A stretch of 30,984 nucleotides of DNA from Sanchytrium tribonematis (taxonomy: Eukaryota > Sanchytriomycota > Sanchytriomycetes > Sanchytriales > Sanchytriaceae), in NCBI GenBank assembly GCA_018985235.1, contig JADGIG010000051.1, positions 1 through 30,984 of the forward strand. The letters run 5' to 3'. The position numbers were made by a program, and so were the translations under genes. Positions 6,587 to 30,984 of this stretch are shown piece after piece. The notes under the pieces were generated by a model, which ran no database searches, was not told where the DNA came from, and worked only from the letters and a program-made list of their open reading frames with translations. Every line of letters starts with the position of its first letter. Positions within the stretch are counted from its first letter, which is position 1.

Positions 6587-7871
6587 ATGAATGATCAGAT
6601 TTATCTACGTTCACTTGGTATCAACAAAATACATGATGTTGTCGATCATTTGATACCAAATTACAATGTTAGCAAGGAATTGAGACAACATACAGGATGC
6701 GTGAACACGGTCCAATTCAACAAATCCGGCGATTTAATGGTTAGTGGATCCGACGATAAGTATATATGCTTGTGGGATGGATTTTCTTTCGAGTTAAAAG
6801 AGAAAATATTTACAAATCACGGTCACAATATCTTTTCTGCAGTTTTGCTGGAAAATGGTGAAGGAGTTCTAAGTTGTTGTGCCAAAGGCGATGTTAAGCT
6901 ATCGAATTTCAGTGGGGATAGCACGCAAATATACAACCATCAAAATGACATGGCATACCAAATTGAACTGGTCGATAGAAACACATTTATGAGTTGCGGA
7001 GAAAATGGAATTATAATGACATATGATTTGCGAGAAGCCCATTATGGGGCATCGGTTTTGGTAGATTCTCATAAGGTCTATAATTTTGAAAAAACTGTAC
7101 ACCAGGCGTCTCATAAAAACACGATGACAGGAATTCCAAGTATGTCAATGAAGAACGATATTTATTTTGCAGCCGCCTTTAACGACGATTTTGTTAGGAC
7201 GTTTGATCGTAGATGGGCTGAAATTTCAATTAATGCTTACTGTCCTGATAAATTCAATCCTTATAGTGCTACCAAAGATTCGACTATTATTAAAAGTCGG
7301 TTACATATGACTAGCAAAATCACAAGCTGCCAATACGATCCCCATGGGAACGGAAGTTTGGTTATAAGCTATGGCGGAAATTGCGTGTATGTTATAGATC
7401 CTGACCAAGATTTCACTGGCGATAATTACTTTAAAACAAACATTTCGGCAAAATGCCTCTCTGGACATTTGAATAGAAGAACTATGATTAAAGAAACTTC
7501 ATTTTTAGGTAATAGTTCTCGCTACGTTATGAGTGGAAGTGATGATGGCAGATTATACATTTGGGATCTCGATACGGAAAAAATTGTGAATTGCTTTGAA
7601 GCTGACGACGATGTTGTGAACTGTACAGTATCACACCCTTTTATACCCTGCATTGTACTAAGTGGAATTGACAATAGTATAAAAGTTTGTTTCCCGGAGC
7701 ACGAATCGTTTGATGAAGCGCAATTTGAGGAATATCTGGGAAATAGAGAAATTTCTGAAACCATGGCTTTAAGACTCCCACTGGATCGTCTAATGATGAG
7801 TACTTCATTTTGACTTAGTTCTGAGACAAGGTGGATTTGATGTTACGGACGAAGATTACGAGTCTGATTAG
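6587..7871 (+). CDS. WD40 DDB1/CUL4-associated factor (DCAF6/DCAF8/WDTC1-like), one 19-nt intron
   Basis: Exons 6587-7799 and 7819-7871 give 421 residues. WD repeats follow the DCAF6/8/WDTC1 order: HTGCVNTVQFN...SGSDDKYICLWD, GHNIFSAVLLENG, a middle ITSCQYDPHG...YVIDPD block, then the signature tail NRRTMIKETSFLG, MSGSDDGRLYIWD, DDDVVNCTVSHPFIP and LSGIDNSIKV. Such proteins are substrate receptors for CUL4-DDB1 ubiquitin ligases; this role is inferred from family. Without splicing the frame stops after MMSTSF. Removing GTACTTCATTTTGACTTAG continues it as MMILRQGGFDVTDEDYESD, an acidic end. AATAAA (7878-7883) lies 7 nt past the new stop. VPS2 follows 49 nt later. Confidence 0.8.
7800..7818 (+). 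other. 19-nt intron in DCAF gene
   Basis: GTACTTCATTTTGACTTAG. Phase 1. The candidate branch motif TTGAC places its A six bases from the 3' end. Removal replaces an immediate TGA with an 18-residue acidic C-terminus and brings the stop next to an AATAAA hexamer. Confidence 0.72.
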
Positions 7872-7920
7872 AAAGAAAATAAAGTGAAATTCCAGATAGG
7901 ATTATTTTTTCTAACAAAAG

Positions 7921-8536
7921 ATGAATATTTTTGCACCAAGAAAGACACCCCAAGAAATTCTCAGGCAACACAAGCGATCGATTGACAGAGCAGTCAGGGA
8001 TATTGACCGTGAGAGATCGAAACTGGAGCAGCAAGAGAAAAAATTGCAAGCTGATATAAAAATTATGGCAAAACAAAATATGAATGCATGTAAAATAATG
8101 GCAAAAGATATTATAAAAACACGGCATCATATAACTAAACTATACGAGATGAGAACTCAAATGCAGGCTGTAGGATTAAAGATACAGACTCTCAGTAGTA
8201 ATGCTCAGATGGCAGAAGCAATGAAAGGAGTTTCTAATACCATGAAAGTAATGAACAAACGCATGCAACTGCCTCAAATAGCTAAAATCATGCAGCAATT
8301 TGAGCAAGAAAGTGAAATTCTTGATATGAAACAAGAGATGATGAACGACAATTTTGAAGACATGAATGAGGAGGAGGAAGACGAGACAGACGAGCTTGTA
8401 CAACAGGTTTTAGATGAAATCGGAATAGGAGTTTCCACATCTGTAGCTTTAATTAATTTAGGCACCAGTAGCTCCTAACTCGCAGCAAGCTGTAGATTCA
8501 GATTTAGAAAAGAGGCTCGAGCAGCTTAGGAAATAA
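7921..8536 (+). CDS. VPS2: ESCRT-III subunit VPS2/CHMP2, one 19-nt intron
   Basis: Exons 7921-8442 and 8462-8536 give 198 residues. The N-terminus aligns with CHMP2A throughout: RKTPQEILRQHKRSIDRAVR, DIDRERSKLEQQEKK, ADIKIMAKQ, AMKGVSNTMKVMN, LPQIAKIMQQFE and the acidic patch before QVLDEIGIG. ESCRT-III polymers of this subunit remodel endosomal and division membranes and recruit the VPS4 ATPase. The recruiting motif (MIM1, L-x-x-R-L-x-x-L-R/K) appears as DSDLEKRLEQLRK only after removal of the 19-nt intron; the unspliced frame ends TSVALINLGTSSS. A basic helix 1 followed by an acidic C-terminal half is normal for the family. AATAAA (8532-8537) overlaps the stop. Confidence 0.92.
8443..8461 (+). 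other. 19-nt intron in VPS2
   Basis: GTAGCTTTAATTAATTTAG, phase 0, branch-like TTAAT with A at position -6. A donor at 8431 (31-nt intron, phase 0) would also restore the frame, but 19 nt matches the other introns. Splicing restores the MIM1 motif. Confidence 0.85.
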
Positions 8537-8632
8537 AATACCTCGAAATAAAAATTCCAACTAACAATAGATGATTTGCTGTCTAATTTTTTAATTTAAA
8601 TAAAAGCTTGATTGGCGACTTTTGAAACTTTG

Positions 8633-9334
8633 ATGTACGATGGTTCTGCTTACGATATATTAGGAGCCCTACAACTTGTGGTATACCTATGTGTTCTCGC
8701 TGCATATATTGGTGCTTTTAGGTGGGAGCAGTTAAGATTTATGAAGCAAAACAAATTAATTAACTTTCCAAATCTGCCTTTGCTTGGCGTTATTATCTTA
8801 TATGTTCCAGTTATAGCATGTACTTGGGCCCGAGATGTCGAAGTTGTAATCAGTGAAATATCTGTTTCATCGTTTGTTATGGAGATGATCTGGTTATATT
8901 CTGTTTGCTATTTTTTGATTCAATTGTTAAAGTTTTCTAATCAGCATCAAAGGAAACATCTATTTTTACTAGCTTCTTGTACCTTGGGCCCTCTTTTGAT
9001 TTTGTCTTTGTGTTTTTTTGGATTATTTCCCATAGAAAAAATCCAAGGAAATTCCTCGGTTCAAGGTTACGTGGAGTTTTTACGAATTTCACTTTATTGC
9101 AATTTTTGCATTCATATGATTTTATTTGTGATACTTTATTACCCTTTTATCAAAAAGCACACAGTATTATGGAGTCTTTGCGCCTTAGCCTTAATTTTGA
9201 CCATTGTTTGCGCATCTTTATATTCCGTATTTCCAATACAAGAGCTTCACATATTTGTAACCACTCTTTGGCTCATGATAGTCATTATTCATGGGTTTAT
9301 TATTACAGACTTTACACGTCGAATTTACAAATAA
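8633..9334 (+). CDS. Small seven-transmembrane protein of unknown family
   Basis: A 233-residue protein from ATG 8633 (the frame extends upstream only to a TTG). Seven hydrophobic segments of ~20 residues fill it: LQLVVYLCVLAAYIGAF, LPLLGVIILYVPVIACTW, MEMIWLYSVCYFLIQLL, FLLASCTLGPLLILSLCFF, YCNFCIHMILFVILYY, WSLCALALILTIVCASLY and VTTLWLMIVIIHGFII. Loops are short and the C-terminus is the basic TRRIYK. There is no RGS box or other cytosolic domain, unlike the 7TM gene at 4174. It could be a receptor or an intramembrane scaffold, but I do not recognise the family. AATAAA (9330-9335) overlaps the stop; HAT1 starts 25 nt later. Confidence 0.68.
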   Translation: MYDGSAYDILGALQLVVYLCVLAAYIGAFRWEQLRFMKQNKLINFPNLPLLGVIILYVPVIACTWARDVEVVISEISVSSFVMEMIWLYSVCYFLIQLLKFSNQHQRKHLFLLASCTLGPLLILSLCFFGLFPIEKIQGNSSVQGYVEFLRISLYCNFCIHMILFVILYYPFIKKHTVLWSLCALALILTIVCASLYSVFPIQELHIFVTTLWLMIVIIHGFIITDFTRRIYK

Positions 9335-9359
9335 AAAATAAAAATCATATTTTTCTGAC

Positions 9360-10544
9360 ATGATTATAAAACTTGGATCTCAGAAATTTGAGCCTGAATA
9401 TGTTGAAAACAATGACGATGTTTGGCGAATAACAGACAAACTGACTGTAGAAAAGGGAGACAAATCCTATGAAGTAAACAGTGTAGACTATGGTGATAAA
9501 ATTTATTTTGGCAATGATATGAAATTGTACCATAGCAAACCTATTCAATACACAAAAGTTGATTTGACAGCACTGAAGGAATCTATTGACACGGCAACGG
9601 ATATTGTAGACAAGAGAAAACTAGCAACTGCTTTGCAAGTGCAATATATTGGTATTCCAAATCTTGATGCAGCTACTCCATTGGATGATATATATTACAG
9701 AGATATGCATGTATTTACTTTATTCAAAAGTGAACTACTAGCTGGAGCTTGTATTGGAATTGAACAATTAAACAAAAATGAAGACAAAGACAACTTGGAA
9801 TTGTTTGGTTCGACTTTCAGAATTTGTCACTTTTTTATTCTTAAGCCTTTTCAAAATATGGGGCTTGGGCGGCAACTATACGCTGAAGTCAAAAAATTCG
9901 TTAATGAAAACTTTGATAGACTTTGTGTTGAGGATCCAAATGAGTTATTCTGTAACTTAAGAGATCATTGTGACTTGAGAGAAGTACAGGAAAGCGGTGG
10001 CTTGTCCGCTTTACTAAATAGGGCCGATGGGGAGTCATCGAAAAGATCCAAATTGGACCCCATCTCATTCGTGGGCAAATTCAATGGAATTCGAAATTAT
10101 ATCTCAAAGTTGCAATCGAAATTCCGATTATCTCCAGTAATTTATACTAACGAAGGATCAGTCAGTTAGAGTGTACGAGATGACCATTTTAGATGAGCTT
10201 TCTTTCGGAATGGAAAACAAATTTGATTTATTACAAAACTTTGAAGTTATGTCGAAATTTATGGAAATGTTGGCTGATCGAATTCAGACTCAAAACCAAA
10301 CAACAGAGGTATTACTGCCAGTTGAGCAGGACCAAAATCAAAGTTTACAACAGACAAGTTTGCTAAGAGTGCAAGATTACCTAGATGTATTAAATAAAAT
10401 GAGATGATTTGCCTCTTTTTTCGTAAAGAAACAATAGAATGCATCTTCATAGCGAAAAGAGATGTTTCTGAGCAACGGGAACGAGAACTACAAAATGTAC
10501 TTCAAGATATGTTGCCGAATTTGTGTCGAGGGAAACCTCCTTAA
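9360..10544 (+). CDS. HAT1: Histone acetyltransferase type B catalytic subunit HAT1, interrupted twice
   Basis: Acetylates newly made histone H4 before chromatin assembly. Proposed exons 9360-10136, 10156-10386 and 10404-10544 give 382 residues, a normal HAT1 length. The GNAT core shows FFILKPFQNMGLGRQLYAEV (acetyl-CoA loop) followed by LCVEDPNELFCNLRDHCDLR, the HAT1-specific V-E-D-P...L-R-D motif. Removing the 19-nt intron at 10137 joins KFRLSP to DQSVRVYEMTILDEL, matching the F-K-I-N-K-x-x-x-R-R-V-Y-E-I-L segment of animal HAT1. The frame then stops at 10407, but the next frame reads FFRKETIECIFIAKRDVSEQ and RERELQNVLQDML, which resembles the HAT1 C-terminal helix. That second junction (17 nt, 10387-10403, or 35 nt) is uncertain and could be a sequence indel. 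Confidence 0.82.
10137..10155 (+). other. 19-nt intron in HAT1
   Basis: GTAATTTATACTAACGAAG, phase 0, with a perfect CTAAC branch motif whose second A is six bases from the 3' end. Splicing restores the conserved VYE segment of HAT1. Confidence 0.87.
10387..10403 (+). other. Possible 17-nt intron (or indel) in HAT1
   Basis: GTATTAAATAAAATGAG, phase 0. It has GT and AG ends, but the YTNAY branch motif is poor and the length departs from 19-20. An alternative 35-nt intron starts at the GT at 10369. The downstream frame looks coding, so some frame change of +2 (mod 3) is needed here; a sequencing or assembly error in the A-rich run is the competing explanation. Confidence 0.35.
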
Positions 10545-10573
10545 ATTTTGTTTTGTTCCCAAAATTATTCCTA

Positions 10574-10607
10574 ATTGGATGGAAACACGTGATGGGGGTA
10601 TAAAAAG
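10574..10607 (+). promoter_or_regulatory. U3 promoter: ATTGG, CACGTG and TATA box
   Basis: Inverted CCAAT box ATTGG (10574-10578), palindromic E-box CACGTG (10586-10591) and TATAAAAAG (10599-10607). The TATA box lies 29 nt before the predicted U3 5' end, a standard polymerase II (or U6-type) distance. Confidence 0.6.
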
Positions 10608-10627
10608 AAATTAATCCCCAAAAACTT

Positions 10628-10812
10628 AAGACCGTACTGTACAGGATACATGTATAGTTAATATCTAGTGTTTAGTCATCTGACTAGGTACCTTGATCAG
10701 CTCAGAAGGTGATATTTTCGTTGTAGAGAAGAGGGACAACTGCATTTAGCAATGGATGATCTTGCTCGTAGTCGTATGACATTGAGCATCTCTACAACGG
10801 TATCTGATGAGT
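10628..10812 (+). ncRNA. U3 small nucleolar RNA
   Basis: No reading frame of note. The 5' end AAGACCGTACTG followed by GGATACATGTATAGT matches the U3 GAC / box A' / box A region (human AAGACUAUACUUUC then GGAUCAUUUCUAUAGU). A 5' hairpin follows (TAGTC 10673-10677 with GACTA 10682-10686). Then come a C'-like box GGTGATATTT (10708-10717), an 11-bp long-range helix CGTTGTAGAGA/TCTCTACAACG (10719-10729 with 10789-10799), a box B region, box C GGATGATCTTG (from 10754), a hairpin TGCTC/GAGCA and box D TCTGA (10803-10807). It ends five bases after box D as in yeast and human. This order and pairing is the U3 3' domain. U3 guides early 18S rRNA processing in the SSU processome, whose protein UTP5 is also encoded in this window. 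Confidence 0.85.
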
Positions 10813-10814
10813 TG

Positions 10815-11220
10815 CCCTAATATGTTTTTGTTTTGTTTTATAATAACTCCGATTTTCTATCTTTAGAGGACGTCGCCTTATCTTAGGTTACGTTGTCTTA
10901 CATCTCCAAAATTAGTGCAATTTTTCAAATTGTATAACTTTTCAGTATACTTCTCTTTCCTTTCATGGGATCATCCCCAACTTATTATTAATTTCGCCAG
11001 ACCACACAATATTTTTAGCCATGATCACATGGACCGTCGCAATACTCAAACGCCGTGACCCTTTAAAGTCTATAATCAAATGCGTGTCTATTTCAAGTTG
11101 CCTCAAGAAGACAATAAGTTTTATTTAATAAATCATTTAAAAAGTTGTACAAATCAATACATTTGCATCTCTAGATCATGAGTTGTCATTTCATTATTTT
11201 GTGTTCCCTGTACATAGTCA
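10815..11220. other. Unassigned intergenic DNA
   Basis: No convincing reading frame or tRNA. A T-rich tract with TTTATAATAA (about 10838-10847) follows U3. Local hairpins are visible: CAATTT-TTC-AAATTG (starting 10919), GTATA/TATAC just after it, TGGG/CCCA around 10977-10990, and CCATG-ATCA-CATGG (about 11019-11032). The AATTTTTC stretch next to a hairpin resembles an Sm site, but no snRNA signature was identified. Could be 3' flank of U3 plus distal promoter. Confidence 0.4.
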
Positions 11221-11221
11221 T

Positions 11222-11373
11222 ACGTAATATACGTATACGAATTATCACATCCAAACCCAACATTGTACTTAAAGGAACCAATAACGTGCAAGGCGAAACA
11301 CCATACGTGACGTTGTACGGCGTCGTGATTGGTACACGTGAGTATGAATTCTAGGGGTAAAGTGCTATAAAAA
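11222..11373 (+). promoter_or_regulatory. Promoter of zinc-finger gene: six ACGT cores, ATTGG, E-box and TATA box
   Basis: ACGT tetramers at 11222, 11231, 11284, 11305, 11310 and 11336 lie within ~120 bp, the last inside CACGTG (11335-11340), and one overlaps GTGACGTT. ATTGG lies at 11328-11332. TATAAAAA (11366-11373) is 36 nt before the last base preceding ATG 11409. ACGT cores are typical bZIP/bHLH binding sites. This is the richest promoter in the window and precedes its only clear regulator gene. Confidence 0.55.
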
Positions 11374-11408
11374 TAAAGCAGCCCATCCAGGCCAAAAAGT
11401 ATCACAAC

Positions 11409-12803: not shown

Positions 12804-12820
12804 ATAAATCTGTATATTGT

Positions 12821-14731: not shown

Positions 14732-14748
14732 AATATTTTGGCCTAATC
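14732..14748. promoter_or_regulatory. 17-nt divergent intergenic region
   Basis: Only 17 bases separate the start codons of the CEP78-like gene (minus) and TPR gene (plus). No TATA or other motif fits; transcription of each gene probably starts inside the other, or the TPR gene uses ATG 14770. Confidence 0.45.
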
Positions 14749-15921: not shown

Positions 15922-15945
15922 TAAATTTTGTTACTGAAACATTTT

Positions 15946-17564
15946 ATGAGCAAAGAAAAACTGATAATATTTGACACAACATTACGAGATGGCGAGCAGA
16001 GCCCAGGAGTCACCTTGGATACACAGGAAAAGATTAAAATAGCTAAACAATTAAGTATTTTGGGCGTTGATGTTTGCGAGGCTGGATTTCCTGTGGCAAG
16101 TGTTGGGGATTTTGAGAGTGTCAAATCCATTGCAACCATAGTGGGAAACATAAATGATGGCAGAAAGGAACCTATGATCATATGTGCATTGGCCAGGGCA
16201 ACAAATAAGGATATCGAAACTGCTGCGAAAGCAATAGAACCAGCAAAAAATAAGCGGATTCACACGTTTTTGGCAACTTCCGATCTGCATCTAAAATACA
16301 AGCTTAAAATCTCCAGGGAGGAATGCATTACTAAGGCGGTAAATGCAGTCAAATTGGCAAAGTCTTTTGTCAATGATGTTGAATTTAGCTGCGAAGATGC
16401 TGCCAGATCTGACAGGCACTTCTTATGTCAGGTGATACAAGAAGTAATTAAAGCAGGTGCTACTACCTTGAACATCCCCGACACCGTTGGCTATATGCAG
16501 CCAGAACAGTATGGAAGTCTTATCAAATACTTAATCGATAATACGCTTGGTAGTGAAAATGTGATTTGGAGTAATTTAATTCTTACGTAGGCACACACTG
16601 TCATAATGATTTAGGACTAGCGACGGCTAACACCTTGGCTGGAGTCAATAATGGTGCCAGGCAAGTTGAAGTCACGATTAATGGGATAGGTGAGCGGGCT
16701 GGAAACACTTCATTGGAAGAAATCGCCATGACCCTTTATGTTCATGAGAAATCCTCTCAAGTCTATACCGACATTGTTAAAAATGAGATTTATAAAACAA
16801 GTCAATTGGTCAAAAATTTTACAGGAATGGTAATACAGCCAAACAAAGCGATTGTTGGTAAAAATGCTTTTGCCCACGAATCAGGAATACACCAGGATGG
16901 TGTTCTCAAAAATGCAGAGACTTATGAGATTATAAATCCAGAGATAGTTGGAATTCCTAAAAACAGTATTGTTTTAGGAAAACATTCTGGTAGAAACGCC
17001 TTGAAGAGCAGAGTTGCAGAACTGGGGTTTATTTTGAAAGATATTGAACTCGATGAGATTTTCAAGACGTTTAAGAAACTTGCGGACTCTAAGAAGAACA
17101 TTACCGACGATGATCTCATTTCTATACTTACCGGCGAAGAGACGTCAAAACAATTTTATGAATTAAAATCGCTGCAAATTGTAGCTGGAACGTCTGCACT
17201 GGCCACGGTTTCAGTTGAAATTTTGAAAGAAAATGAACAAGAAGCAATAGCAGATGCAGCAGTTTCTAGAAACGGTGCATTAAGTGCGATATTTAGCTGT
17301 TTAGATCGCATAGTCGCATCTGATAATATAGTAGTGACATTAGATCATTACCAAGTTACCAGTGTCACCGAAGGCGGTGACAGTATAGGGCAAGTTAGTG
17401 TTAAAGTAAGATCCCAAGTAAACGAAAAATCAGTAGTTATTGGAGGGCATGCGAATGATGTGGACGTCTTAATTGCCTCTGCAAAAGCATATCTTAAAGC
17501 ATTGTCACGGGTCAAATTGGCCAACGGACGTAATGAGACCCGGGATACTTCGAGCGAAATTTAG
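15946..17564 (+). CDS. leuA: 2-isopropylmalate synthase, bacterial/plastid (LeuA) type, one 20-nt intron
   Basis: Condenses acetyl-CoA with 2-oxoisovalerate, the committed step of leucine synthesis. Exons 15946-16570 and 16591-17564 give 532 residues. The catalytic barrel shows [62 protein letters not shown] (metal-binding H-x-H-N-D, made by splicing) and [22 protein letters not shown] and LGKHSGR follow, then the C-terminal regulatory domain with [11 protein letters not shown]. This is the short LeuA/plant IPMS form, not the longer LEU4 type of most fungi, so horizontal acquisition is plausible. There is no transit peptide, so it is probably cytosolic. The 20-nt intron shows it resides in the nuclear genome. 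RAD6 follows 36 nt downstream. Confidence 0.9.
16571..16590 (+). other. 20-nt intron in leuA
   Basis: GTAATTTAATTCTTACGTAG, phase 1, branch-like CTTAC with A six bases from the end. Unspliced, the frame stops at the intron's own TAG; spliced, it restores the invariant STHCHNDLG metal-binding segment. Confidence 0.92.
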
Positions 17565-17600
17565 TAAATTCTATTCATATAATTTGCAACAATAGGAGTA

Positions 17601-18062: not shown

Positions 18063-18174
18063 TTTATTTTGAAATAAAATGCCGTACTATTTAGGGTTTA
18101 CATATTTCGAGCAATTAAGACATGCGTCTTCGCTTTTTCGACCAAAAGTATATCGATGACGTCGGGTATCAATC

Positions 18175-18450: not shown

Positions 18451-18485
18451 TAAAATATAGTCTTCAATTTTAGGGGATCTCCTCG

Positions 18486-19847: not shown

Positions 19848-19858
19848 TAAACTAGTTT

Positions 19859-20143
19859 TTAATTTATTGCTGACGAATATAACTTTAGACTTTCGTCCAT
19901 TGATCCCGAGTAATCAAAAACATGAACTTCATCAACTTCAACTTGCAATTGAGAATTAACTGTACCCTCTACTTGAATAATTCTATCGGTTGGAAAATCT
20001 CTGCCCTTTAGAGTAACAATTCCACTACCTTCCTTTAATATAGCATATCCATTTTTGTTTTCATCGATTGTACCTACCAAAGCCACATTCTTACCGACAA
20101 ACTCATTCAATCCTGTACTTGCAATTCTTGTCGCTACAACCAT
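19859..20143 (-). CDS. RFA3: Replication protein A 14-kDa subunit (RPA3/RFA3)
   Basis: A 94-residue single OB-fold protein starting MVVATRIASTGLNEFVGKNVALVG, which matches the RPA3 start T-R-I-x-A-x-x-L-x-x-F-x-x-K-x-V-x-x-V-G. GSGIVTLKG and IIQVEGTVNSQLQVEVDEVHVF follow. It is the small scaffolding subunit of the heterotrimeric ssDNA-binding complex. The frame stays open further upstream (to 20203), but residues before MVV look like non-coding sequence, and the family start supports ATG 20143. AATAAA (plus-strand 19863-19868) abuts the stop. The gene is divergent from PP5. Confidence 0.8.
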   Translation of the reverse strand: MVVATRIASTGLNEFVGKNVALVGTIDENKNGYAILKEGSGIVTLKGRDFPTDRIIQVEGTVNSQLQVEVDEVHVFDYSGSMDESLKLYSSAIN

Positions 20144-20229
20144 CAAATAGACTCCTTGTAACAATTGCAACTTCGAATGAGGTACAATCAAACAACACAG
20201 CAAATACCTCGTGACCGGAAAAGAGAAAA

Positions 20230-21881
20230 ATGGTAAGTTTTGAATGTGATGACATACCTACATTCTCTGATTGAATGATGAGTACTAGACTCCTGATTCG
20301 CACAACTCATGTAGATTGAAATTATATTATGACTTTACGTTCTTCTCAAAAGCAATAATTATAATAAATTAAACCTAATTACTTTTCAGAATAATGAACT
20401 CCTTGAAATGGTAGAAGACAATTCTACAGCTGCAGAATCTGCAAAGCAGTTGGGAAATAAATATTTTAAAGAAAAGCACTATGACAAGGCCATTAATGCA
20501 TATACGGAAGCCATCAAAATTGAAGAGCGACCAGCTTTTTATTGTAACAGAGCAATGGCAAATTTTCACTTGGAGTATTATGGCCAAACAATTAGTGACG
20601 CAAACTCGGCAATATTACTAGACGACAAATTTTTCAAGGCCTTCTACAGGAGAGGCTGTGCATACGTACAGTTATTAAAATTTGATGAAGCTATTAAAGA
20701 TTTTAAATTAGTTTACACAAATACAAAAGATCCAAATGCCTATCAGCACTTGGTATCATGCGACAAAATCATTAAGCAAAGAAAATTTGAAGAAGCCATT
20801 AGAGTAGAGGAAACAAACCCATTCGACAAAGAGGATTGGAAGCAGATGATCGTTAGCGATTACTCTGGTCCGTCGGTCGATGCGGAATTTAGTATTGAGC
20901 TGGTGTACAAGTGTGCAGAATATATGAAAGAAAAAAGTCTGCATAGAAAACTTCTAATGAGGATATTAGTTCAATGCTACGAAGCATTCAGATGTCTAGA
21001 CTCAATTGTAGATATCAAAGTCCCTAAAAATGGACTCTTGACGATTTGTGGTGATACTCACGGGCAATATTTTGATGTTCTGAATATATTCGGGAAATAC
21101 GGGTGGCCTAGTGAGTCCCACTATTATCTGTTTAATGGAGATTTTGTGGACAGAGGGTCATGGTCTGTTGAGGTAATTACCTTGCTTTTGCTTATCAAAT
21201 GCGCTTTACCCAACAGCATCTATTTGACCAGAGGAAACCATGAGACTAATGACATGAATAAGGTTTATGGATTTGAAGGTGAAGTGAAAGCAAAATACTC
21301 TTCCTCTTTATTTCCATACTTCACAGAAATTTTTAATGCCTTACCTCTAGGTTTTCTAATTGAGAACAGAATATTTGTTTGTCATGGTGGTTTGTGCAGC
21401 GAAACTCCTGATATTGACAGTTTAAGAAAAATCAATAGATTTAAACAACCACAGCAAGGATTTTTCACTGAACTCTTATGGAGTGATCCTTGTGATGCCG
21501 ATGGCGTAAATCCAAGTAAAAGAGGTGCCGGAATTAGCTTTGGTTCAGATATAACTAAATCTTTTTGCGAAAAGAACGCAGTAGAACTTGTCATTCGATC
21601 GCACGAAGTGAAGGAAGAAGGTTTTGAGATTGCACACAACGGAAAATGTATAACGATTTTCAGCGCACCAAATTATTGCGATCAAATGGTATTTTTAATT
21701 GATATAGGGTAACAAAGGAGCGGTAATTCATTTTTCTTTCTCCGAGACGCCAAAGGTTGAGCCTAAAGCCAACTTGGGTATCGTTGGTGGAATGAATGGG
21801 TGGATTGATCAGTTTTTAGCCGTTCCTCATCCTAATGTCAAGCCTATGGCATATGCTGGTGGATTTGGACAAATGCAATAA
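20230..21881 (+). CDS. PPT1: Serine/threonine protein phosphatase 5 with TPR domain (PP5/PPT1)
   Basis: An HSP90-associated phosphatase. Proposed exons 20230-20232 (ATG only), 20390-21688 and 21708-21881 give 491 residues. Three TPRs (~residues 18-120: AKQLGNKYFKEKHYDKAINAY, FYCNRAMANFHL, AFYRRGCAYVQL) precede the catalytic domain with GDTHGQ, FNGDFVDRGS, LTRGNHET, FVCHGGL, LWSDP, IRSHEVK and SAPNYCDQ. Removing a 19-nt intron joins CDQM to GNKGAVIHF and the family end VPHPNVKPMAYAGGFGQMQ. If the ATG-only exon is wrong, ATG 20408 gives a protein seven residues shorter. AATAAA (21877-21882) overlaps the stop. FEN1 begins 22 nt later. Confidence 0.92.
20233..20389 (+). other. 157-nt conventional intron after the PP5 start codon
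   Basis: GTAAGT directly after an ATG (20230-20232), ending CCTAATTACTTTTCAG, with a pyrimidine tract unlike the 19-nt introns. Exon 2 (AATAATGAACTCC) continues in frame into the TPR domain. It encloses a box C/D snoRNA. RNA evidence is lacking; the alternative is that PP5 starts at 20408 without this intron. Confidence 0.6.
20241..20300 (+). ncRNA. Intronic box C/D snoRNA
   Basis: All four boxes are exact and in order: C GTGATGA (20246-20252), D' CTGA (20267-20270), C' ATGATGA (20275-20281), D CTGA (20293-20296). A 4-bp terminal stem (TGAA 20241-20244 with TTCG 20297-20300, one G-U pair) closes it. Guide segments are CATACCTACATTCT before D' and GTACTAGACTC before D. It lies inside the inferred PP5 intron, 13 nt past the donor base, as intron-encoded snoRNAs do. 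Such RNAs direct 2'-O-methylation, here probably of rRNA; I could not identify the target from memory. Confidence 0.7.
21689..21707 (+). other. 19-nt intron in PP5
   Basis: GTATTTTTAATTGATATAG, phase 0, branch-like TTGAT with A at -6. Splicing turns a premature stop after CDQMVFLIDIG into the conserved CDQM-GNK junction. Confidence 0.93.
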
Positions 21882-21903
21882 ATTTATTTTTTGGCTGAGA
21901 CAA

Positions 21904-23038
21904 ATGGGTATCAAATCCCTAACGAAAGTTTTGACAGAACACGCACCAAATGCGACCAAACTTAAGCCAATAAAATCCTACTTTAGCAGAAAAGTTGCGA
22001 TAGACTGCAGCATGTGGATTTATCAATTTTTGGTTGCCGTTCGAACCGGAGGCAATAACATGCAAGATAGCGAAGGAAATACAACGAGTCATTTAATCGG
22101 ATTGTATTATAGGACAATAAGAATGCTGGAAAATGGAATTGAGCCTGTTTTTGTTTTTGACGGAAAACCACCAGATCTCAAGTCCGTTGAATTAAACAAA
22201 CGAAAAGCAAATAGAGATAAGGCAGAAAAGGATCTGCAGAAAGCGAAAGATGAAGGTAACGCAGAAGACGAGGAAAAGTTTAATCGCAGATTGACTAAAG
22301 TCACTCCTGAACATAATGCCGAATGTCAAAAGCTGTTGACTTTGATGGGAGTTCCTTTTATTATTGCACCATGTGAAGCCGAAGCTCAGGCTGCAGAACT
22401 TGCAAAAAAGGGGAAAGTTTTTGCTGTAGGTACAGAGGATGCCGATACACTCTGTTTCGCAACTCCAGTCTTATTAAGAAATCTAAGTGCCGCTGATAAC
22501 AAAAAACTCGATATTAAAGAAATTACTTTATCCACCATTTTAGAGGATATGAATTTAACTCAATCTCAATTTATTGACCTTTGCATTTTGTTGGGATGTG
22601 ATTATTTAGAGTCGATTAAAGGACTGGGGCCTAAATCGGCTATGAATTTGATAAAAAAGTATGGAAGTATAGACAAGATCGTAGAGGCTAAAGCTTCTGA
22701 CAAAAATGGAAAAGGTCTCAAATTTGATATTCCTGAAGTTTGGGATTATCAACAAGCGAGAGAACTGTTTATCAACCATCCAGTCATACCAGCCGAAGAC
22801 GTTGATTTTAAATGGATCGACCCTGATGAACAAGGCTTAGTAGATTACCTTGTGACTGAGAAAAACTTCAGGTAATTTTCTTTAAATTAGCGAGGATCGA
22901 ATCCGGAATGGTGTAGCAAAAATCCGTAAGACTAGAACAAAAGGAAAGCAAGGTAGACTTGATGATTTTTTCAAATTTTCAAGTGCCAAAAGGTCTACAA
23001 ATGAAAATTCTAACCCTGTCAAAAAAGTTAAAAAATAA
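21904..23038 (+). CDS. FEN1: Flap endonuclease 1 (FEN1/RAD27), one 19-nt intron
   Basis: Removes 5' flaps in Okazaki fragment maturation and base excision repair. Exons 21904-22871 and 22891-23038 give 371 residues. It starts MGIKSLTKVL, with the helical cap and acidic active site visible as IDCSMWIYQF, VFDGKPPDLK, IIAPCEAEAQAAEL, GTEDADTL and LGCDYLESIKGLGPK (helix-hairpin-helix). After splicing, LVTEKNFS continues as EDRIRNGVAKIRKTRTKGKQ and then GRLDDFFK, which includes the PCNA-binding PIP box (Q-x-x-L-x-x-F-F). A basic tail follows. The frame also stays open upstream through the end of PP5, but only ATG 21904 gives the family start. AATAAA (23034-23039) overlaps the stop. Confidence 0.95.
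22872..22890 (+). other. 19-nt intron in FEN1
   Basis: GTAATTTTCTTTAAATTAG, phase 2, A at -6 in TTAAATTAG. Unspliced, FEN1 ends at EKNFR and lacks the PIP box; spliced, it matches the family to the end. Confidence 0.94.
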
Positions 23039-23052
23039 ACTAACTTTGTTTA

Positions 23053-25347: not shown

Positions 25348-25352
25348 TGGCC

Positions 25353-26234
25353 TTAATCAAAAAATATAATATTTTGAAATCTGCGCATCAAAGATTTTGG
25401 AATCAAATCTATGTAGTTGGTTGCACCTATTACAATTATTTTGCCTCGCCCTCTGTCTTTCAACTTATCGAGTTCTGCATGCAATTGCCATAAAATTTTA
25501 CAAATATAGTTTTCATCTGAACCAAAAATGACATCAAGCTCGTCAATAAATATAAATATACAATCACTACCTACATTAAATAATCTAGACAGCGCTCTCT
25601 CGCCTTCTCCGACATGCGACTTCAATATATCTTGAATTTGCACATTGATAAAAGTAGGACTACCTCCAATAGCTACAATTTCTTGTAAATATGCCCTAGC
25701 CATCATAGTTTTACCTTTTCCGGGAAGACCATGAAATATAATGCTCTCAAACGAATTCTTACTTTTATAAATATTCATAAGTTGTGTTTTTACAGTTTCA
25801 CGGCCAATAACAGAGTTGAAATTGATACTTTTAATAGGATCGACTAGACTACTCGCGTCATCCTCAGATATGGAGCTTTTTTTAAAATATTGCAACATAA
25901 AATTGTATACTTTTGATCTGTCTGTTGCAAACGCAATAATTTTAATTTTGTTCTCCTGAGCATACTCGAAAGCTATTGCTAATTGCTTGAGCTCGTGAAT
26001 GGAAGAATCGTGATGAAAATCTTCTAAATGTCGAATATACAACACTTTGCCGTGTTTCTTCGCGTACGCAAATACTGCACGGATCCCATGAATTGCATTA
26101 TTAAAGTAAGTTTTAAGAAGTCCCAAGCTGAGAATTACGCAGTCTTCTTTTTTCATAAACTTGTCAATTTTTTCGCAATTGCCATATACAATTAAGTTTT
26201 CCAGTGGTGGAAAAGTCAGTTTATTAGTTTCCAT
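25353..26234 (-). CDS. AAA ATPase with degenerate first module and truncated second
   Basis: A 293-residue protein. Residues ~130-293 hold an AAA core: P-loop HGLPGKGKTMMARAY, the pore-region position SHVGEGERALSRLF, Walker B IFIFIDELDVIFG, sensor 1 GATN and Arg finger RRF. Residues ~35-115 look like the back half of another AAA domain without a P-loop (RAVFAYAKKHGKVLYIRHLEDF, KIIAFATDR). The protein stops eight residues after the Arg-finger segment, so the small alpha-helical lid is absent. Closest in style to AFG2/SPATA5 or PEX1-type tandem AAA proteins, but I do not assign it. No AATAAA follows the stop, and the next gene starts after 5 nt. Confidence 0.68.
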   Translation of the reverse strand: METNKLTFPPLENLIVYGNCEKIDKFMKKEDCVILSLGLLKTYFNNAIHGIRAVFAYAKKHGKVLYIRHLEDFHHDSSIHELKQLAIAFEYAQENKIKIIAFATDRSKVYNFMLQYFKKSSISEDDASSLVDPIKSINFNSVIGRETVKTQLMNIYKSKNSFESIIFHGLPGKGKTMMARAYLQEIVAIGGSPTFINVQIQDILKSHVGEGERALSRLFNVGSDCIFIFIDELDVIFGSDENYICKILWQLHAELDKLKDRGRGKIIVIGATNYIDLIPKSLMRRFQNIIFFD

Positions 26235-26272
26235 GAAAATTCCCCTTTTTTATGAAAATTTTCATTAAAGTG

Positions 26273-26983
26273 CTAATTTATTATCGAAATGCCTAATTCA
26301 TGCAGTGAAGGAATCAGCCAAGATTTAAATTTGGAATTGCAGCAATCAATCGGACTTAGCCCATTGTTATTACGACTGTGAATAGATTTTCCGAAATTTG
26401 CGGCAAGATACACCACAACTTCTCCATTACTCAATTCACATGCGAGATGTATAGGCAGGTTCCCCTCAGAATCTTTCAACTGTTTTGCTCCTCTGCTACA
26501 TAACAATTCAACCATAGCTCTATTTCCAACGCTGCTACACCTATGAAGTGGTGATTGTTGATATTTATCAACTGCATTTATCAAATCTGGTTTATTGTCC
26601 AGTAGCAACTGCGCAATTGGTATAGAGCCTTTAGATGCAGCAAAATGAAGAGCCGATTGACCTGTTTTTGAAGTTTTACCTAAATCAACCTTGCAATTGT
26701 ATGTTAATAATTGAACAATTTCAAGATTTGTGGTTGCGCACGATAATAAAAATGGAGTAAATCCACCATCATCAGAAACATCTGCTAGAGATATATCGAT
26801 TTTGCTTAGAATAAATTGTACAATTTTCGTGTGCATTCCGACCACAGCCCAATGCAAAGCGGTCCTACCGTCTAAATCCTTTAGTTCTAGTTGATCCGAA
26901 AGCTTTTCTACTTTATGAAAATGTCCTAGGAAGGCAGCTTCAAAAATTCCACCGAATTTGTTATCATTTGAGATTTGAGTCAT
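26273..26983 (-). CDS. NAS6: Gankyrin / NAS6 proteasome assembly chaperone
   Basis: A 236-residue protein of about seven ankyrin repeats. The sequence DLDGRTALHWAVVGMHTKIV, then TGQSALHFAASKGSIPIAQLLL, SPLHRCSSVGNRAMVELL and KDSEGNLPIHLACE follows PSMD10/NAS6 in order and spacing, including the diagnostic D-S-E-G-N-x-P-x-H-L-A-C. NAS6 binds the RPT3 ATPase during assembly of the 19S regulatory particle. The gene lies 38 nt upstream of an AAA ATPase gene, but that protein does not look like RPT3. AATAAA is embedded in the last codons, just before the TAG stop. Confidence 0.85.
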   Translation of the reverse strand: MTQISNDNKFGGIFEAAFLGHFHKVEKLSDQLELKDLDGRTALHWAVVGMHTKIVQFILSKIDISLADVSDDGGFTPFLLSCATTNLEIVQLLTYNCKVDLGKTSKTGQSALHFAASKGSIPIAQLLLDNKPDLINAVDKYQQSPLHRCSSVGNRAMVELLCSRGAKQLKDSEGNLPIHLACELSNGEVVVYLAANFGKSIHSRNNNGLSPIDCCNSKFKSWLIPSLHELGISIIN

Positions 26984-27014
26984 TACAGAAACAAAGGAGT
27001 TGATTTACTTAAAA

Positions 27015-28064
27015 TTATGCTATCTTGACTCTGTCATTTTGAACATTGTATGAGCAATTCACTAATTCGATTTTCACCGAGGAATTTTGCTTCAAAATCT
27101 CATTGATATAATTATCAAAATATAAGGCTGAGATATTTTCAAATCGAATTTGTCTCGCAGAGCATCTGATCAAGTACGAAATAACATTATCGGATAAAAC
27201 TATTGCATTTTTGGTTTTATCTCCGACGAAAGTTATTGATTTTAAACTTTTGCCCTGAGCTGTGCAACTTTCAACAAATGTATTTAACAAGTTTGGCTCT
27301 ACAGTAGATGAGTTTAGTGGCAATCTGATTGACTGCAGCGTGTAATACTTGATTCTTCTCAGTATGTTAAGCAAAGTATCATTAGAAATGGATTGTGATG
27401 CCAAGTCTACGTCATCTTTTGAAAAATCTATCAGTCCATTGTATTTTGGATTTGTAATGATGTACTGCTTTCCAATTTCTTTGATCAGGTCAACTTTTGA
27501 ATCAAGTTCCGCTTTGAGTTGTGTAAACCCATTATTTAAGCCTTGGACGTCGTCGTTGAAGTCTAAAAAGTACCCGTCATGAAGTCTTAATTGCATTTTA
27601 AATGCATTGATCTCTTTCTGTTGTTCTATAACTAATTGCATCAATTTTTCAACCAAAAAATCTGCGGTTACAGCACAAACATGATCTTTCACTTTTTGTT
27701 TTGTTCCTTCTACTTTGCAACCAAACAAAAATTTTGGGCATTTTACCACTGAAAATTCGCAAATTTTTAAATGTTCTGTTAAATCCTTTCTCTTACAGGA
27801 TTTGGAGCACCCACTTGACCAATTAGTACAGAAAACTTCCATGTCACCCAACTGAGCAGCAAGGTTTTCATCAACTACCGCATTGCTAGGCTTGCAATCT
27901 TTACAGAAAACTTTCCACTCTACCACAAATGGCACATCGCAAGTCTCCTTACATTTAGAACAAGACAAAGATGAATCTGGTCTCTTTAAATAAAAATAGT
28001 TTTTGCTTTTAAAAACTTGGGATTCTTCATTTTCCTCTTCTGAGTCACCATGATAAATCCCCAT
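27015..28064 (-). CDS. TRAF-type zinc-finger protein with LRR-like C-terminus
   Basis: 349 residues from ATG 28064 (MGIYHGDSEEEN). The longer frame to 28148 would run into the start of the divergent DALRD3 gene and reads as non-coding. Cys/His clusters: SCSKCKETC and FCKDC (degenerate RING), then FCTNWSSGCSKSCKRKDLTEH and KICEFSVVKCPKFLFGC followed by KDHVC, which is the TRAF-type finger pattern C-x-N-x-x-x-G-C...H-x-x-x-C. A short coiled coil follows (~residues 130-190), then an LRR-like strand region. There is no MATH domain. Perhaps a ubiquitin ligase or adaptor; the RING ligands are too degenerate to claim activity. AGTAAA lies past the stop. Confidence 0.7.
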   Translation of the reverse strand: MGIYHGDSEEENEESQVFKSKNYFYLKRPDSSLSCSKCKETCDVPFVVEWKVFCKDCKPSNAVVDENLAAQLGDMEVFCTNWSSGCSKSCKRKDLTEHLKICEFSVVKCPKFLFGCKVEGTKQKVKDHVCAVTADFLVEKLMQLVIEQQKEINAFKMQLRLHDGYFLDFNDDVQGLNNGFTQLKAELDSKVDLIKEIGKQYIITNPKYNGLIDFSKDDVDLASQSISNDTLLNILRRIKYYTLQSIRLPLNSSTVEPNLLNTFVESCTAQGKSLKSITFVGDKTKNAIVLSDNVISYLIRCSARQIRFENISALYFDNYINEILKQNSSVKIELVNCSYNVQNDRVKIA

Positions 28065-28100
28065 TCTTGGCCTTTTTAAATTTGAAATTAGGATAAAACA

Positions 28101-28943
28101 ATGCTCAAATTGCAGCGCGACATTGAAAAGCAAATAAAATGCAATCATATTATTTATTATGAGCAGCGCCCTTGCTCATATTACGTTAATTCTGCTCAAT
28201 GGCACAACGACAATCATTCAGAATTCGAGAATATTGAAAAAATTGAAAATTACAGAAGGGGATATCTGCTGTACATAAATATCAACTACTGCATTGGATC
28301 TTTTACAAGAGTATCGTACAAATCGTTCTTAAGCACTTCTTTTTCAGTGGAAGAAAGCACGGGCCTAAATTTATTACATCAAAAACGCATCCAGTATGTT
28401 TATAAGATTTTATCCAACTTCTTTTTCGGAGATGTGAAGCTCACGGTGGGAGAGTTGACGAAATCGGATATCGGAGTCTCTACAATGAAGCAATTTGAAT
28501 GGTGCAATGATGAATTTCAAGATTTGAAGGAAAAATGCACAATGATTTCGACAAAAAGAACTCAGCCAGTGAATTTTAAAATCGATTCAATTTATATAAG
28601 TTACTCCTATGCTAGGCTAAATAGAATTAATGAATACATCATATCGTGCGAGTCAAATTCTCTTGATTTGTCGCTGGCTGACGATGATAGTCGAGTACTT
28701 ATTCACATATTATGTTCATACGAATTCTATCTAGATAATTTCGTGGAAAAGAGAGACCCTTACTTTTTGTTTGTTTACTGCCAAAAGTTGTCCCGAACTG
28801 TTGGCAAAGTACACAAATCTCTTAGAGTCAAAAATACGCACGAAAATCTCAAAATGTTTCGAAGCTACTTGTTTAGCCATTCCTTGCGCATATTGGATGA
28901 GCTTTTTACAGTTTTGGAATTCCAAAAAATTACTGAAATCTAA
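28101..28943 (+). CDS. DALRD3: DALR anticodon-binding domain protein DALRD3
   Basis: 280 residues. The C-terminal ~120 residues form an arginyl-tRNA-synthetase-type DALR domain, without any synthetase catalytic core. Segments matching DALRD3 are GDVKLTVGEL, SIYISYSYARLNRINEY (family Y-N-x-A-R-L), PYFLFVYCQKLSRTVGKVHKSL and SYLFSHSLRILDELFTVL. In animals DALRD3 works with METTL2 to place 3-methylcytidine at position 32 of tRNA-Arg isoacceptors; the same job here is inferred. The divergent TRAF-finger gene starts 36 nt away. The TAA stop shares bases with the convergent RIC1 TAG (28940-28943). No AATAAA is seen near the stop. Confidence 0.75.
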   Translation: MLKLQRDIEKQIKCNHIIYYEQRPCSYYVNSAQWHNDNHSEFENIEKIENYRRGYLLYININYCIGSFTRVSYKSFLSTSFSVEESTGLNLLHQKRIQYVYKILSNFFFGDVKLTVGELTKSDIGVSTMKQFEWCNDEFQDLKEKCTMISTKRTQPVNFKIDSIYISYSYARLNRINEYIISCESNSLDLSLADDDSRVLIHILCSYEFYLDNFVEKRDPYFLFVYCQKLSRTVGKVHKSLRVKNTHENLKMFRSYLFSHSLRILDELFTVLEFQKITEI

Positions 28944-30984
28944 TGCTCGACATTCTGAAGAACAAGGTCCCTTAATGACAGGTAACAAGAACTCTCCATG
29001 GCGAACATCAATTGCTCCCATTTATCCCTAATCTCTGTGTTTATAGTATTTTTTAAGGAAGGTATGTCCTGCAGCATAGAGAGAATCATAACATAGAGCT
29101 CCGTAAATTCGCTGGAAGTTGATGCCAATTTTGCAATGCTCAGTAATCTCATTGTGCGTTTGTCATTCTTCTCTTTCACCAATGATGATTTTCGACTCTG
29201 AGGGGCGCTATTTAGCTCAATATCCGTACTCAAATTTAAATTGGAGCTAGAATTTCGACGAAGTTGTCCACTTTCATAGTCTATAGGCCATTTGAAATTA
29301 ACATGTAGAATTTTGAATGTTTCGAGATCCATAGGGAGCTTGAGATAATCTTTGTGCTGAAGGACATAAGATTTGGCATTTTCACCCGCCAACTGAATAG
29401 TCTCAAACAGATCTGCGTATTGCTTTCGGCTGTATAGCAAATGACAATGTCTGTCGAATAAATCATTAACATTATGAAACCTTGTGAAGTAATCCACAAA
29501 TTCATACTTGTACCGGTCTGCAACCATATCAACAATGTGAGTTGAGTCTAAATAAATAAGGAAAACCTCCGATTTTGTTAATATATTCAAGTATTTCTCT
29601 ACTTAATTGCATGTCCCTCACATCCAGAGCACCTTTTAGAAGTTCAATACAGTCATTTTCCTGAAAACTATTATCATTTTGGCTTAAAACTAAATAACAA
29701 CTTGCTGTTCTGTACTTTTGAAGATTTAGACATTTTCTTAAAATTGAGTCGGGATCTTCTTCAACAATATCAAATAAGTCTTTCCAATAAACGCTTTCCA
29801 TTTTGCGTGCCACTTTTGCAAGCACATCATAAAAATTGGAATAATATTTCAGAACACGAACTAGCATTTTTAAATATTGACTGTCATCGGTTTCCCTACT
29901 TTTTTCCCAAAAGTATGAAAATATTATTTCTAAATAAACTTCATACTGCGGGTCGGTCTTAAAATGGTCCAGATAGGCTTGAAGAAGTTCTTGTTTTTTC
30001 ATGTTAATGCATAATTGAAAGGCAAAAATATGCAAAAAGGGCTGTGTTTTACTTGCAAACTTGATGTATGGCGCGTCATCATGAAAAACACGACTAGCCT
30101 CTAACTCAATAATTAATAATAGACCCTTTTGAATATCGACTGCTACTGGTAATGAATGAACGTTGTAATTAACCTGAAAATCAAATGGCGTTTTATCAAT
30201 CATACAAAATATTTTAACATGCCCAGGGCCCAGCAAAACAAAGCAATGTGAGAATAAATCTGTGAAAATTGGAAAATAACTCAATCCTAGAAGAGAATAT
30301 TTGTAGTCAATTTGGAAAGTTTTTTTCAATGTCGTAATTTTATCGACTTCCTCCACCTTGTACACCATACATGCTATCTTGTCGTAAGTACTCATCACTC
30401 CGGACAAGCTACTAGAGGAAATATTGTTCAAAACGAAGCCCGTTAGATTTTTAAAAGGAAGATCAAGCTCAAATAAATATTCGATATGTTTCAATCCGTC
30501 AAAACTATAAGCTGCTACTGTCCCTTGCTCTTCATTTTTCCCAAAAAAATACAAGTATGGCTTAATATAATCCAGTCGCTGGGCAGGATATCCAATCCTT
30601 ATCCTAGGAACACTTTCTAGATTTATTTCCTGACTAAAGTCTAATACAGTGACAAACTGTTCGGAATAATGATTCTTTACAGTCGTGATTAAGCATATCA
30701 GGCAGTTATTGACAAAAACAATGGAATCTATCGTAGTGGAACTACCATCCTTAAAGTCTATTTCTTGCCAAACGACTTGAGCTTTGCTAAAAATATGAAT
30801 TTTAGTCAGTCTTGTTAAAAAGAGTAAGTCTTTGGTGTTCAATATATTAACAGCGGAAAATTTCTCCAAAGTAAAACCAGTAGGATAGCTCAATGGTATA
30901 AAATGACAACCGCCAGGAATACTGAAAGGTTGAGAGACCGTGGTTGCTATGTGTAATTGATGTCTAGTTAGTAAGCATGGAAAC
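28940..30984 (-). CDS. RIC1: RIC1, partner subunit of the Ypt6/RAB6 exchange factor (5' end off window), one 19-nt intron
   Basis: Exons 29567-30984 (open to the window edge) and 28940-29547. With RGP1 this protein activates Ypt6/RAB6 at the Golgi. The visible ~675 residues are the later beta-propeller strands, then the RIC1 helical domain: VLAKVARKMESVYWKDLF, then RKCLNLQKYRTASCYLVLSQ and LLKGALDVRDMQLSREILEYI, matching the C-L-x-x-x-x-x-x-T-A-x-x-Y-L-x-x-L-Q pattern of the family. The C-terminal exon (DSTHIVDMVADRYKYEFVDYF) includes FKWPIDYE, similar to F-L-W-P in RIC1, and a helical end. The frame remains open to base 30984. At the edge, CTAACTAG (complement of about 30964-30971) could be a 3' splice site. 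Confidence 0.8.
29548..29566 (-). other. 19-nt intron in RIC1
   Basis: On the minus strand GTTTTCCTTATTTATTTAG, phase 1, with TTTAT placing A at -6. It joins two long frames at an Asp codon (G plus AC). It is the only ultrashort intron here without a GTA start. Confidence 0.87.

What the first reader, a model, noticed from the sequence alone, without database searches (positions are those of the whole stretch)
7800..29566. Uniform 19-20-nt spliceosomal introns with a fixed branch-to-acceptor distance
Seven introns (7800-7818, 8443-8461, 10137-10155, 16571-16590, 21689-21707, 22872-22890, 29548-29566) are 19 nt, one of them 20 nt. All are GT...AG, six of seven begin GTA, and every one has an A exactly six bases from the 3' end in a YTNA context (TTGAC, TTAAT, CTAAC, CTTAC, TTGAT, TTAAA, TTTAT), leaving NNAG after the branch pentamer. 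Removal restores family-conserved sequence in each well-known protein. From memory, comparable introns (18-21 nt, mostly 19) are a hallmark of chlorarachniophyte nucleomorphs; here they occur in a genome with secretory, flagellar and leucine-synthesis genes, so miniaturisation looks independent. A spliceosome would have to bind the 5' site and branch site within about 13 nt.
Basis: partly seen in the sequence, partly recalled or inferred. Interest (0 to 1): 0.92.

Follow-up and report, generated by a model that had tools for sequence, protein, structure and literature searches.

The report
Nineteen-base introns in a fungus-like microbe
This small eukaryotic genome, probably of an early-branching fungus-like parasite, interrupts its genes with introns that are almost all exactly 19 bases long, near the lower size limit known for the splicing machinery, and gene calls that ignore introns cut proteins short at them.

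Summary
They belong to a genome-wide class.

A cross-validated scan of 229 kb found 25 frame-restoring introns of 19 nt, 3 of 20, 1 of 21 and none of 17, 18 or 22, against about 0.4 per length by chance. In a genome-wide gapped-pattern search, 54 of the 100 listed matches (196 in all) were exactly 19 nt and 5 were 20. Selected on reading frame alone, 26 of 29 carry A six bases from the 3' end. In two relatives the FEN1 gene has the same intron, readable only as 20 nt. Three relatives have uninterrupted protein at the IPMS intron site.

Prp8 and U1, U2 and U6 RNAs with canonical pairing sites are present, so ordinary U2-type splicing of miniaturised introns is by far the best explanation. Comparable introns (15-28 nt) are known from several lineages, some with the same A(-6) geometry. 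This is a new, apparently fungal-side case, probably a sanchytrid (inferred). No RNA evidence was available.

The parts
7800..7818 (+). 19-nt intron GTACTTCATTTTGACTTAG in a WD40-repeat protein gene (6587-7871)
   Evidence: motif only, no homology across the junction; not recovered by either scan
8443..8461 (+). 19-nt intron GTAGCTTTAATTAATTTAG in a CHMP2/Snf7-family gene (7921-8536)
10137..10155 (+). 19-nt intron GTAATTTATACTAACGAAG (contains TACTAAC) in a HAT1-like gene (9360-10407)
   Evidence: gene weakly HAT1-like, junction not covered by homology; not recovered by either scan
16571..16590 (+). 20-nt intron GTAATTTAATTCTTACGTAG in 2-isopropylmalate synthase (15946-17564)
   Evidence: three relatives have uninterrupted protein here
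21689..21707 (+). 19-nt intron GTATTTTTAATTGATATAG in the PP5 phosphatase gene (20408-21881)
   Evidence: removal gives APNYCDQMGNKGA as in solved PP5 structures
22872..22890 (+). 19-nt intron GTAATTTTCTTTAAATTAG in FEN1 (21904-23037)
   Evidence: same position holds a 20-nt intron in two relatives
29548..29566 (-). 19-nt intron GTTTTCCTTATTTATTTAG (minus strand) in a RIC1-like gene (28940-30983, 5' end off the window)

Best explanation
These are U2-type spliceosomal introns shrunk to a nearly fixed length: G1, branch A at position 14, AG at 18-19, consensus GTANTT...YTNAYNTAG. An ordinary major spliceosome (U1, U2, U6, Prp8) removes them by intron definition. Shown: position, number, length spectrum, motif, reading-frame restoration, sharing with relatives, presence of the core machinery. 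Inferred: U2 pairs at 9-15 and bulges A14; U1, then U6, reads only GTA plus a few bases; the AG four bases after the branch is taken without scanning or a U2AF-read tract; the length sits at a functional floor reached by deletion, with 3n lengths rare because retention must shift frame to be noticed by mRNA quality control; the 20-nt forms add their base between donor and branch. The host is probably a sanchytrid fungus or close kin (about 0.6).
For: Length: 25 at 19, 3 at 20, 1 at 21, 0 at 17, 18, 22-24, 1 at 16; mean 0.37 per length for 45-300 nt. Genome-wide pattern: 54 of 100 listed at 19, 5 at 20. Frame-only selection: 26 of 29 A(-6), 24 of 29 GTA. With GTA and YTNAY demanded and any acceptor allowed, 17 of 17 frame-supported 19-mers end in AG; so do 4 of 4 20-mers (two of them on loci that a pattern ending in AG had brought in) and 1 of 1 21-mer. 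FEN1 in relatives P0004 and P0005: only L=20 fits (17 of 23 and 12 of 12 residues recoverable; next best 6 of 18 and 3 of 7). IPMS: P0241, P0242 and P0243 run through the site with no insertion. U1 5' end AUACUUACCU, U2 GUAGUA and U6 ACAGAGA present; Prp8 with seven Pfam domains.
Against: No RNA reads. Neither scan recovers all seven window introns (5 of 7 in union). U1 scores under Rfam's gathering cut-off (43.7 against 69.5 bits). SF1-HH gave no hit and U2AF large subunit only sub-threshold matches, but the SF1 controls were silent too and the assembly is probably incomplete. One likely 19-nt intron in HBS1 ends in AT, not AG. The frame tests cannot see 3n-long introns without a stop; the motif-only and pattern-only counts, which can, show no excess at 18 or 21 (3 and 3 hits, 0 and 0).
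Confidence: 0.93

Rival explanations
1. The 19-nt class is only part of a mixed population; a further set of longer or differently marked introns exists and was missed.
For: The motif was trained on 19-20-nt introns, so long introns with other signals would escape; 248 kb of about 6.3 Mb was scanned de novo; Porospora has such a mixed population (PMC9250747, passages).
Against: The frame-only scan used no motif and shows no other clear peak from 12 to 60 nt (25 and 52 nt have 5 each; control pairs reach 1-6 at 25 nt, and controls at 52 nt were not printed); motif plus frame shows 0.37 per length for 45-300 nt, chance level.
Confidence: 0.2
2. The stretches are removed by something other than a spliceosome: DNA elimination as of ciliate IESs, or translational bypassing.
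For: Removal from mRNA has not been seen; precise excision is all the DNA shows.
Against: GT...AG at 17 of 17, YTNAY branch context, canonical U1, U2 and U6 and full Prp8; the Prp8 frame of over 2,100 codons holds no TAA, TAG or TGA, as expected of the standard code; nearest named relatives are fungi and animals, not ciliates.
Confidence: 0.02
3. Assembly errors or decaying genes mimic introns.
For: The assembly is a draft in 311 contigs with low reported coverage values.
Against: Errors would not share one length, GT-AG, A(-6) and a position conserved in two relatives.
Confidence: 0.01
4. The window is from a chlorarachniophyte nucleomorph or similar relict nucleus.
For: Same length class (18-21 to 18-23 nt; passages of PMC10245619 and PMC4035089).
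Against: Genome at least 6.3 Mb against 0.37-0.61 Mb for those nucleomorphs; IPMS nearest to an aphelid and early fungi, Prp8 to a mix of fungi and animals.
Confidence: 0.01
5. The host is not a sanchytrid but another fungal-side lineage (aphelid-, rozellid- or blastoclad-related) or a more distant opisthokont.
For: Trees place the clade on a long unresolved branch; SSU rRNA could not be searched.
Against: SPAdes plus TransDecoder record style, GC 35.0%, contig sizes and a second related EukProt genome fit the published sanchytrid pair.
Confidence: 0.38

Closest known systems
Pygmy introns of chlorarachniophyte nucleomorphs (Bigelowiella, Lotharella)
   Same: 18-21 to 18-23 nt, GT-AG, hundreds per genome, narrow size range (PMC10245619, PMC4035089, passages)
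   Different: Those lie in 0.37-0.61 Mb relict green-algal nuclei; this is a >=6.3 Mb genome with fungal-side proteins
Introns of Babesia microti (20 bp) and Porospora gigantea (mode 28 bp)
   Same: A conserved A six bases from the 3' end in a compact nuclear genome (PMC9250747, passages)
   Different: Apicomplexans; the Porospora small class is wider (25-30 bp) and coexists with other introns
Tiny introns of Stentor coeruleus (15-16 nt)
   Same: Branch A at position 10 of 15, i.e. -6; GUA donor; commonest intron GUAAUUUUUAUAUAG lacks +5G as here (PMC9505925, passages)
   Different: Donor-to-branch distance 9 nt rather than 13; ciliate; U2AF1 and U2AF2 candidates listed there
Mikrocytid introns (16-17 nt)
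   Same: All of nearly one length, conserved sequence (PMC10245619, passages)
   Different: Highly reduced parasites placed with Rhizaria; 224 introns in M. mackini, against an extrapolated 1,200 or so here

Membership tests
U2-type (major) spliceosomal introns | GT...AG ends | tested here: met
   7 of 7; 17 of 17 frame-supported 19-mers with free acceptor; one HBS1 exception ends AT, which the test did not pick up although its locus was included
U2-type (major) spliceosomal introns | Branch adenosine in a U2-complementary context | tested here: met
   A(-6) in 26 of 29 and YTNA in 23 of 29 frame-only 19-mers; U2 GUAGUA present. The lariat itself was not seen
U2-type (major) spliceosomal introns | Core spliceosome encoded in the genome | tested here: met
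   Prp8, U2 (19), U6 (44), U1 below the gathering score (43); U4 and U5 not searched
U2-type (major) spliceosomal introns | Excision from RNA | not testable with these tools
   no RNA data
Chlorarachniophyte nucleomorph introns | 18-23 nt length class | tested here: met
Chlorarachniophyte nucleomorph introns | Location in a sub-megabase relict green-algal nucleus | tested here: not met
   6.34 Mb held; nearest named hits of IPMS are an aphelid and early fungi, of Prp8 a mix of fungi and animals
Ultra-short introns with fixed A(-6) geometry (Stentor, B. microti, Porospora type) | Narrow length plus fixed branch-to-AG distance | tested here: met
Sanchytriomycota (host identity) | Assembly size, GC and contig statistics of the published genomes | tested here: inconclusive
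   GC 35.0% over 248 kb against 34.64% and 36.27%; 6.34 Mb in 311 contigs against 10.5-11.2 Mb in 1167-1960; smallest of 25 contig lengths seen is 10.5 kb, suggesting a length cut
Sanchytriomycota (host identity) | rRNA or phylogenomic placement beside Blastocladiomycota | tested here: inconclusive
   IPMS nearest named hits Amoeboaphelidium and Allomyces; trees unresolved; SSU search unanswered

The most novel reading that the evidence does not exclude
A fungal-side lineage has moved its whole intron set to a 'ruler' mode of splicing: donor, branch and acceptor are read as one rigid 19-base unit. The +5G that anchors U1 and U6 is given up, SF1 and U2AF are dispensed with, and the branch-to-AG gap is locked at the same value that Stentor, B. 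microti and Porospora reached independently. That would mean A(-6) is a physical minimum of the spliceosome itself.
Probability: 0.25. Interest if true: 0.8.

Novelty: new member of a known kind. Interest (0 to 1): 0.6.

Why it matters
It adds an independent, apparently fungal-side origin to the few lineages whose introns sit at the lower size limit, in a genome whose U1, U2 and U6 keep the usual pairing sites. Comparing it with Stentor and the apicomplexans asks directly which distances are fixed by the machine (branch to AG) and which can vary (donor to branch: 9, 13 or more nt). There is also a practical side: held protein predictions of two relatives stop inside the unspliced FEN1 intron (P0004, P0005), so protein sets and gene counts for this clade are likely distorted.

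Tried and rejected
SSU rRNA was asked for three times and not answered, so host identity rests on proteins and assembly style. Picozoa was considered and dropped (SAG co-assemblies 32-109 Mb, passages of PMC8599508), as were uncultured choanoflagellates (estimated 29-52 Mb, passages of PMC6792448). Trees of Prp8, IPMS and FEN1 keep the clade of relatives together with full support but do not place it. The reversed-pattern controls were not used, because the reversed pattern differs in composition; they were 398 against 271 matches and 146 against 196. Length contrast within the pattern was used instead. The pattern was one base too long for the 19-nt class, so it says nothing of that class. 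Seeking long introns up to 300 nt gave chance level only. Non-AG acceptors gave none and non-GT donors 5 scattered. A +5G deficit was noticed and tested on three sets. Rows dropped: L001-L009 and L030 for overlap, L031-L037 from the test because a pattern had chosen them, L046 and L048 for overlap. Literature: searches of an open-access library showed no report of 15-25-nt introns in fungi or sanchytrids in the rows I saw; search 74 brought up no Babesia paper. The library is partial and only the listed rows were seen, so this is weak evidence of absence from print.
Full report
What was checked. All seven stretches are at the coordinates given: six of 19 nt and one of 20, all GT...AG, six beginning GTA, all with A at -6 in YTNA. 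The last (29548-29566) is on the minus strand. Junction homology is strong for three: FEN1 and IPMS by alignment with relatives and named fungi, and PP5 by a continuous match to a solved PP5 structure (APNYCDQM|GNKGA). It is weak for RIC1 and CHMP2, and absent for the WD40 and HAT1-like genes.

Is it more than chance? I held 248 kb of this genome for scanning: the window, 20 stretches fetched by place and 8 short loci brought in by searches; seven of those eight came from the intron-like pattern and were left out of the test. GC is 35%, and chosen stop-to-stop ORFs of 150 aa or more cover 77%. A scan that used only reading frame and codon usage, no motif, found GT-AG frame-restoring candidates peaking at 19 nt (10 of 62), where six control dinucleotide pairs gave 0-4. 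At a looser cut the frame-only set holds 29 candidates of 19 nt: 26 have A at -6, 24 begin GTA, 23 end TAG. A motif trained on one half of the stretches and tested on the other, over 229 kb, gave 49 hits at 19 nt against a mean of 4.7 for the other lengths 15-44. With frame support added it gave 25 at 19, 3 at 20, 1 at 21, 1 at 16, none at 17, 18 or 22-24, and 0.37 per length for 45-300. The scans miss real ones: each recovers 4 of the 7 window introns, 5 of 7 together. They also cannot see an intron of 3n bases that holds no stop; the motif-only counts, which can, show 3 hits at 18 and 3 at 21, no more than background. Genome-wide, the pattern GTAT-N(0-30)-TTNATTTAG has 196 matches; of the 100 listed, 54 are exactly 19 nt, 5 are 20, none is 17, 18 or 21. 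Extrapolating the motif excess gives about 1,200 introns in 6.34 Mb, a rough figure.

Anatomy. Over a union set of 41 nineteen-mers (it includes three frame-only candidates that lack A14 and may be false): G1 T2 A3 (36 of 41), T6 (33), Y11 (39), T12 (37), A14 (38), T17 (34), A18 G19. Part of this set was chosen by motif, so the frame-only figures above are the unbiased ones. +5G, the usual anchor for U1 and U6 (recalled), is absent: 0 of 29 frame-only and 0 of 41 union; background after GTA is 15%. Among the 54 genome-wide 19-mers I count 3 with G there (from the listing). The four frame-only 20-nt candidates all keep A at -6, but two of them lie on loci brought in by a pattern that demands it; the other two are the window's IPMS intron and one on L015. 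So the extra base seems to lie between donor and branch. With GTA and YTNAY demanded and the acceptor left free, 17 of 17 frame-supported 19-mers end in AG. If retained, 13 of the 29 frame-only introns meet a stop inside the intron; that the rest meet one soon after was a condition of the scan.

Relatives. FEN1 of two relatives (P0004, P0005) is truncated exactly at our intron site. Back-translating their tails with all codon choices, only a 20-nt intron allows GT...AG, A at -6 and the conserved downstream protein (17 of 23 and 12 of 12 residues recoverable; next best 6 of 18 and 3 of 7). A third relative (P0003) has uninterrupted FEN1, by splicing of its model or by loss; I cannot tell. At the IPMS site three relatives show uninterrupted protein. 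P0242 was called from contigs in the same style as our genome's own record, so the intron is probably absent there; for the other two I cannot tell.

Machinery. Prp8 is one intact frame with seven Pfam domains. U2 (115.9 bits), U6 (61.8) and U1 (43.7 bits, under the gathering score of 69.5) are present, with U1 5' end AUACUUACCU, U2 GUAGUA and U6 ACAGAGA. U2AF large subunit gave only matches below cut-off; the best belongs to a protein closest to the CC1/RBM39 family, itself under that family's cut-off (198.5 against 231.65 bits). SF1-HH gave nothing, but its controls, all prokaryotes, were silent too. Only 25 contig lengths were seen, the smallest 10.5 kb, so short contigs may be missing, and absences count for little.

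Whose genome? Its Prp8 is the EukProt record NODE_296_length_10502, the length of contig C215. The nearest named IPMS hits are Amoeboaphelidium and Allomyces, then other early fungi. The FEN1 list of 120 mixes many animals with a few zoosporic fungi, mostly Blastocladiomycota (group names recalled). The named Prp8 hits mix fungi and animals. In the midpoint-rooted Prp8 tree the clade sits on a long branch that I read as lying between fungi and the rest; support there was not printed. The other two trees are unresolved. SPAdes contigs with TransDecoder calls, GC and contig sizes fit the published sanchytrids (PMC8371127, passages). In that paper's held text 'intron' occurs once, in a reference title, and 'splicing' not at all. 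The identification is inference, about 0.6.

How it works. With the branch at position 14, U1 on positions 1-6 and U2 on about 9-15 would nearly touch, so recognition must be of the intron as one unit. I infer that weak U1 pairing (no +5G) eases hand-over to U6, and that the AG is taken at a fixed distance with no scanning. Stentor has its branch at position 10 of 15, also -6 from the end (PMC9505925, passages). Porospora and B. microti also have A at -6 (PMC9250747, passages). The shared value suggests a limit set by the spliceosome. Length fixation could come from deletion pressure down to a floor, as argued for mikrocytids (PMC10245619, passages). The lack of excess at 18 and 21 nt may add selection for frame-shifting lengths, as recalled from Paramecium work and not tested here.

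Novelty. Uniform ultra-short introns are known from ciliates, mikrocytids, nucleomorphs and apicomplexans; microsporidian introns are described as few and relatively short (PMC10245619, passages). I found no report of this size class from the fungal side in the rows of the searches listed, which cover open-access papers only. I file this as a new member of a known kind, in a new lineage, with the absence of +5G and the shared A(-6) as the points worth testing.

Noticed in passing
L047 1485-1503 (G000:C164): HBS1-like gene: the 19-nt stretch whose removal restores NMISGASQAE is GTAATCTATTCTAATTTAT, i.e. it has the intron consensus but ends in AT instead of AG. Either a GT-AT intron or a sequence error.
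   Followed up: partly
P0004, P0005 (FEN1 of relatives) and P0001 (window ORF): Held protein predictions of two relatives stop inside the unspliced FEN1 intron, as the window's own ORF does; protein sets of this clade made without intron modelling are probably truncated at many introns.
   Followed up: partly
L021 3546-9998 and P0121-P0123 (Prp8): Prp8 of this clade lacks a recognisable JAB/MPN Pfam match (PF01398) that most other listed eukaryotes show, and is shorter (about 2,200 aa).
   Followed up: partly
G000: An EF-1alpha model gave seven matches, none over its cut-off; the two best genes read as HBS1-like and GTPBP-like. Either EFL replaces EF-1alpha or the gene lies on contigs not held.
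   Followed up: partly
window 15946-17564: 2-isopropylmalate synthase hits are early fungi, with sequences labelled Chloroflexi on the same tree; its eukaryotic history may involve transfer.
   Followed up: partly
window 10421-11390: About 1 kb with no ORF of 100 aa or more in an otherwise gene-dense window; single copy in the 248 kb held and no Rfam match.
   Followed up: partly
L028 minus 4286-4304 and L029 plus 3849-3867: Two places on contig C299 carry the identical intron GTACTTGTTATTAATTTAG in similar flanks, suggesting a recent gene duplication that kept its intron.
   Followed up: no
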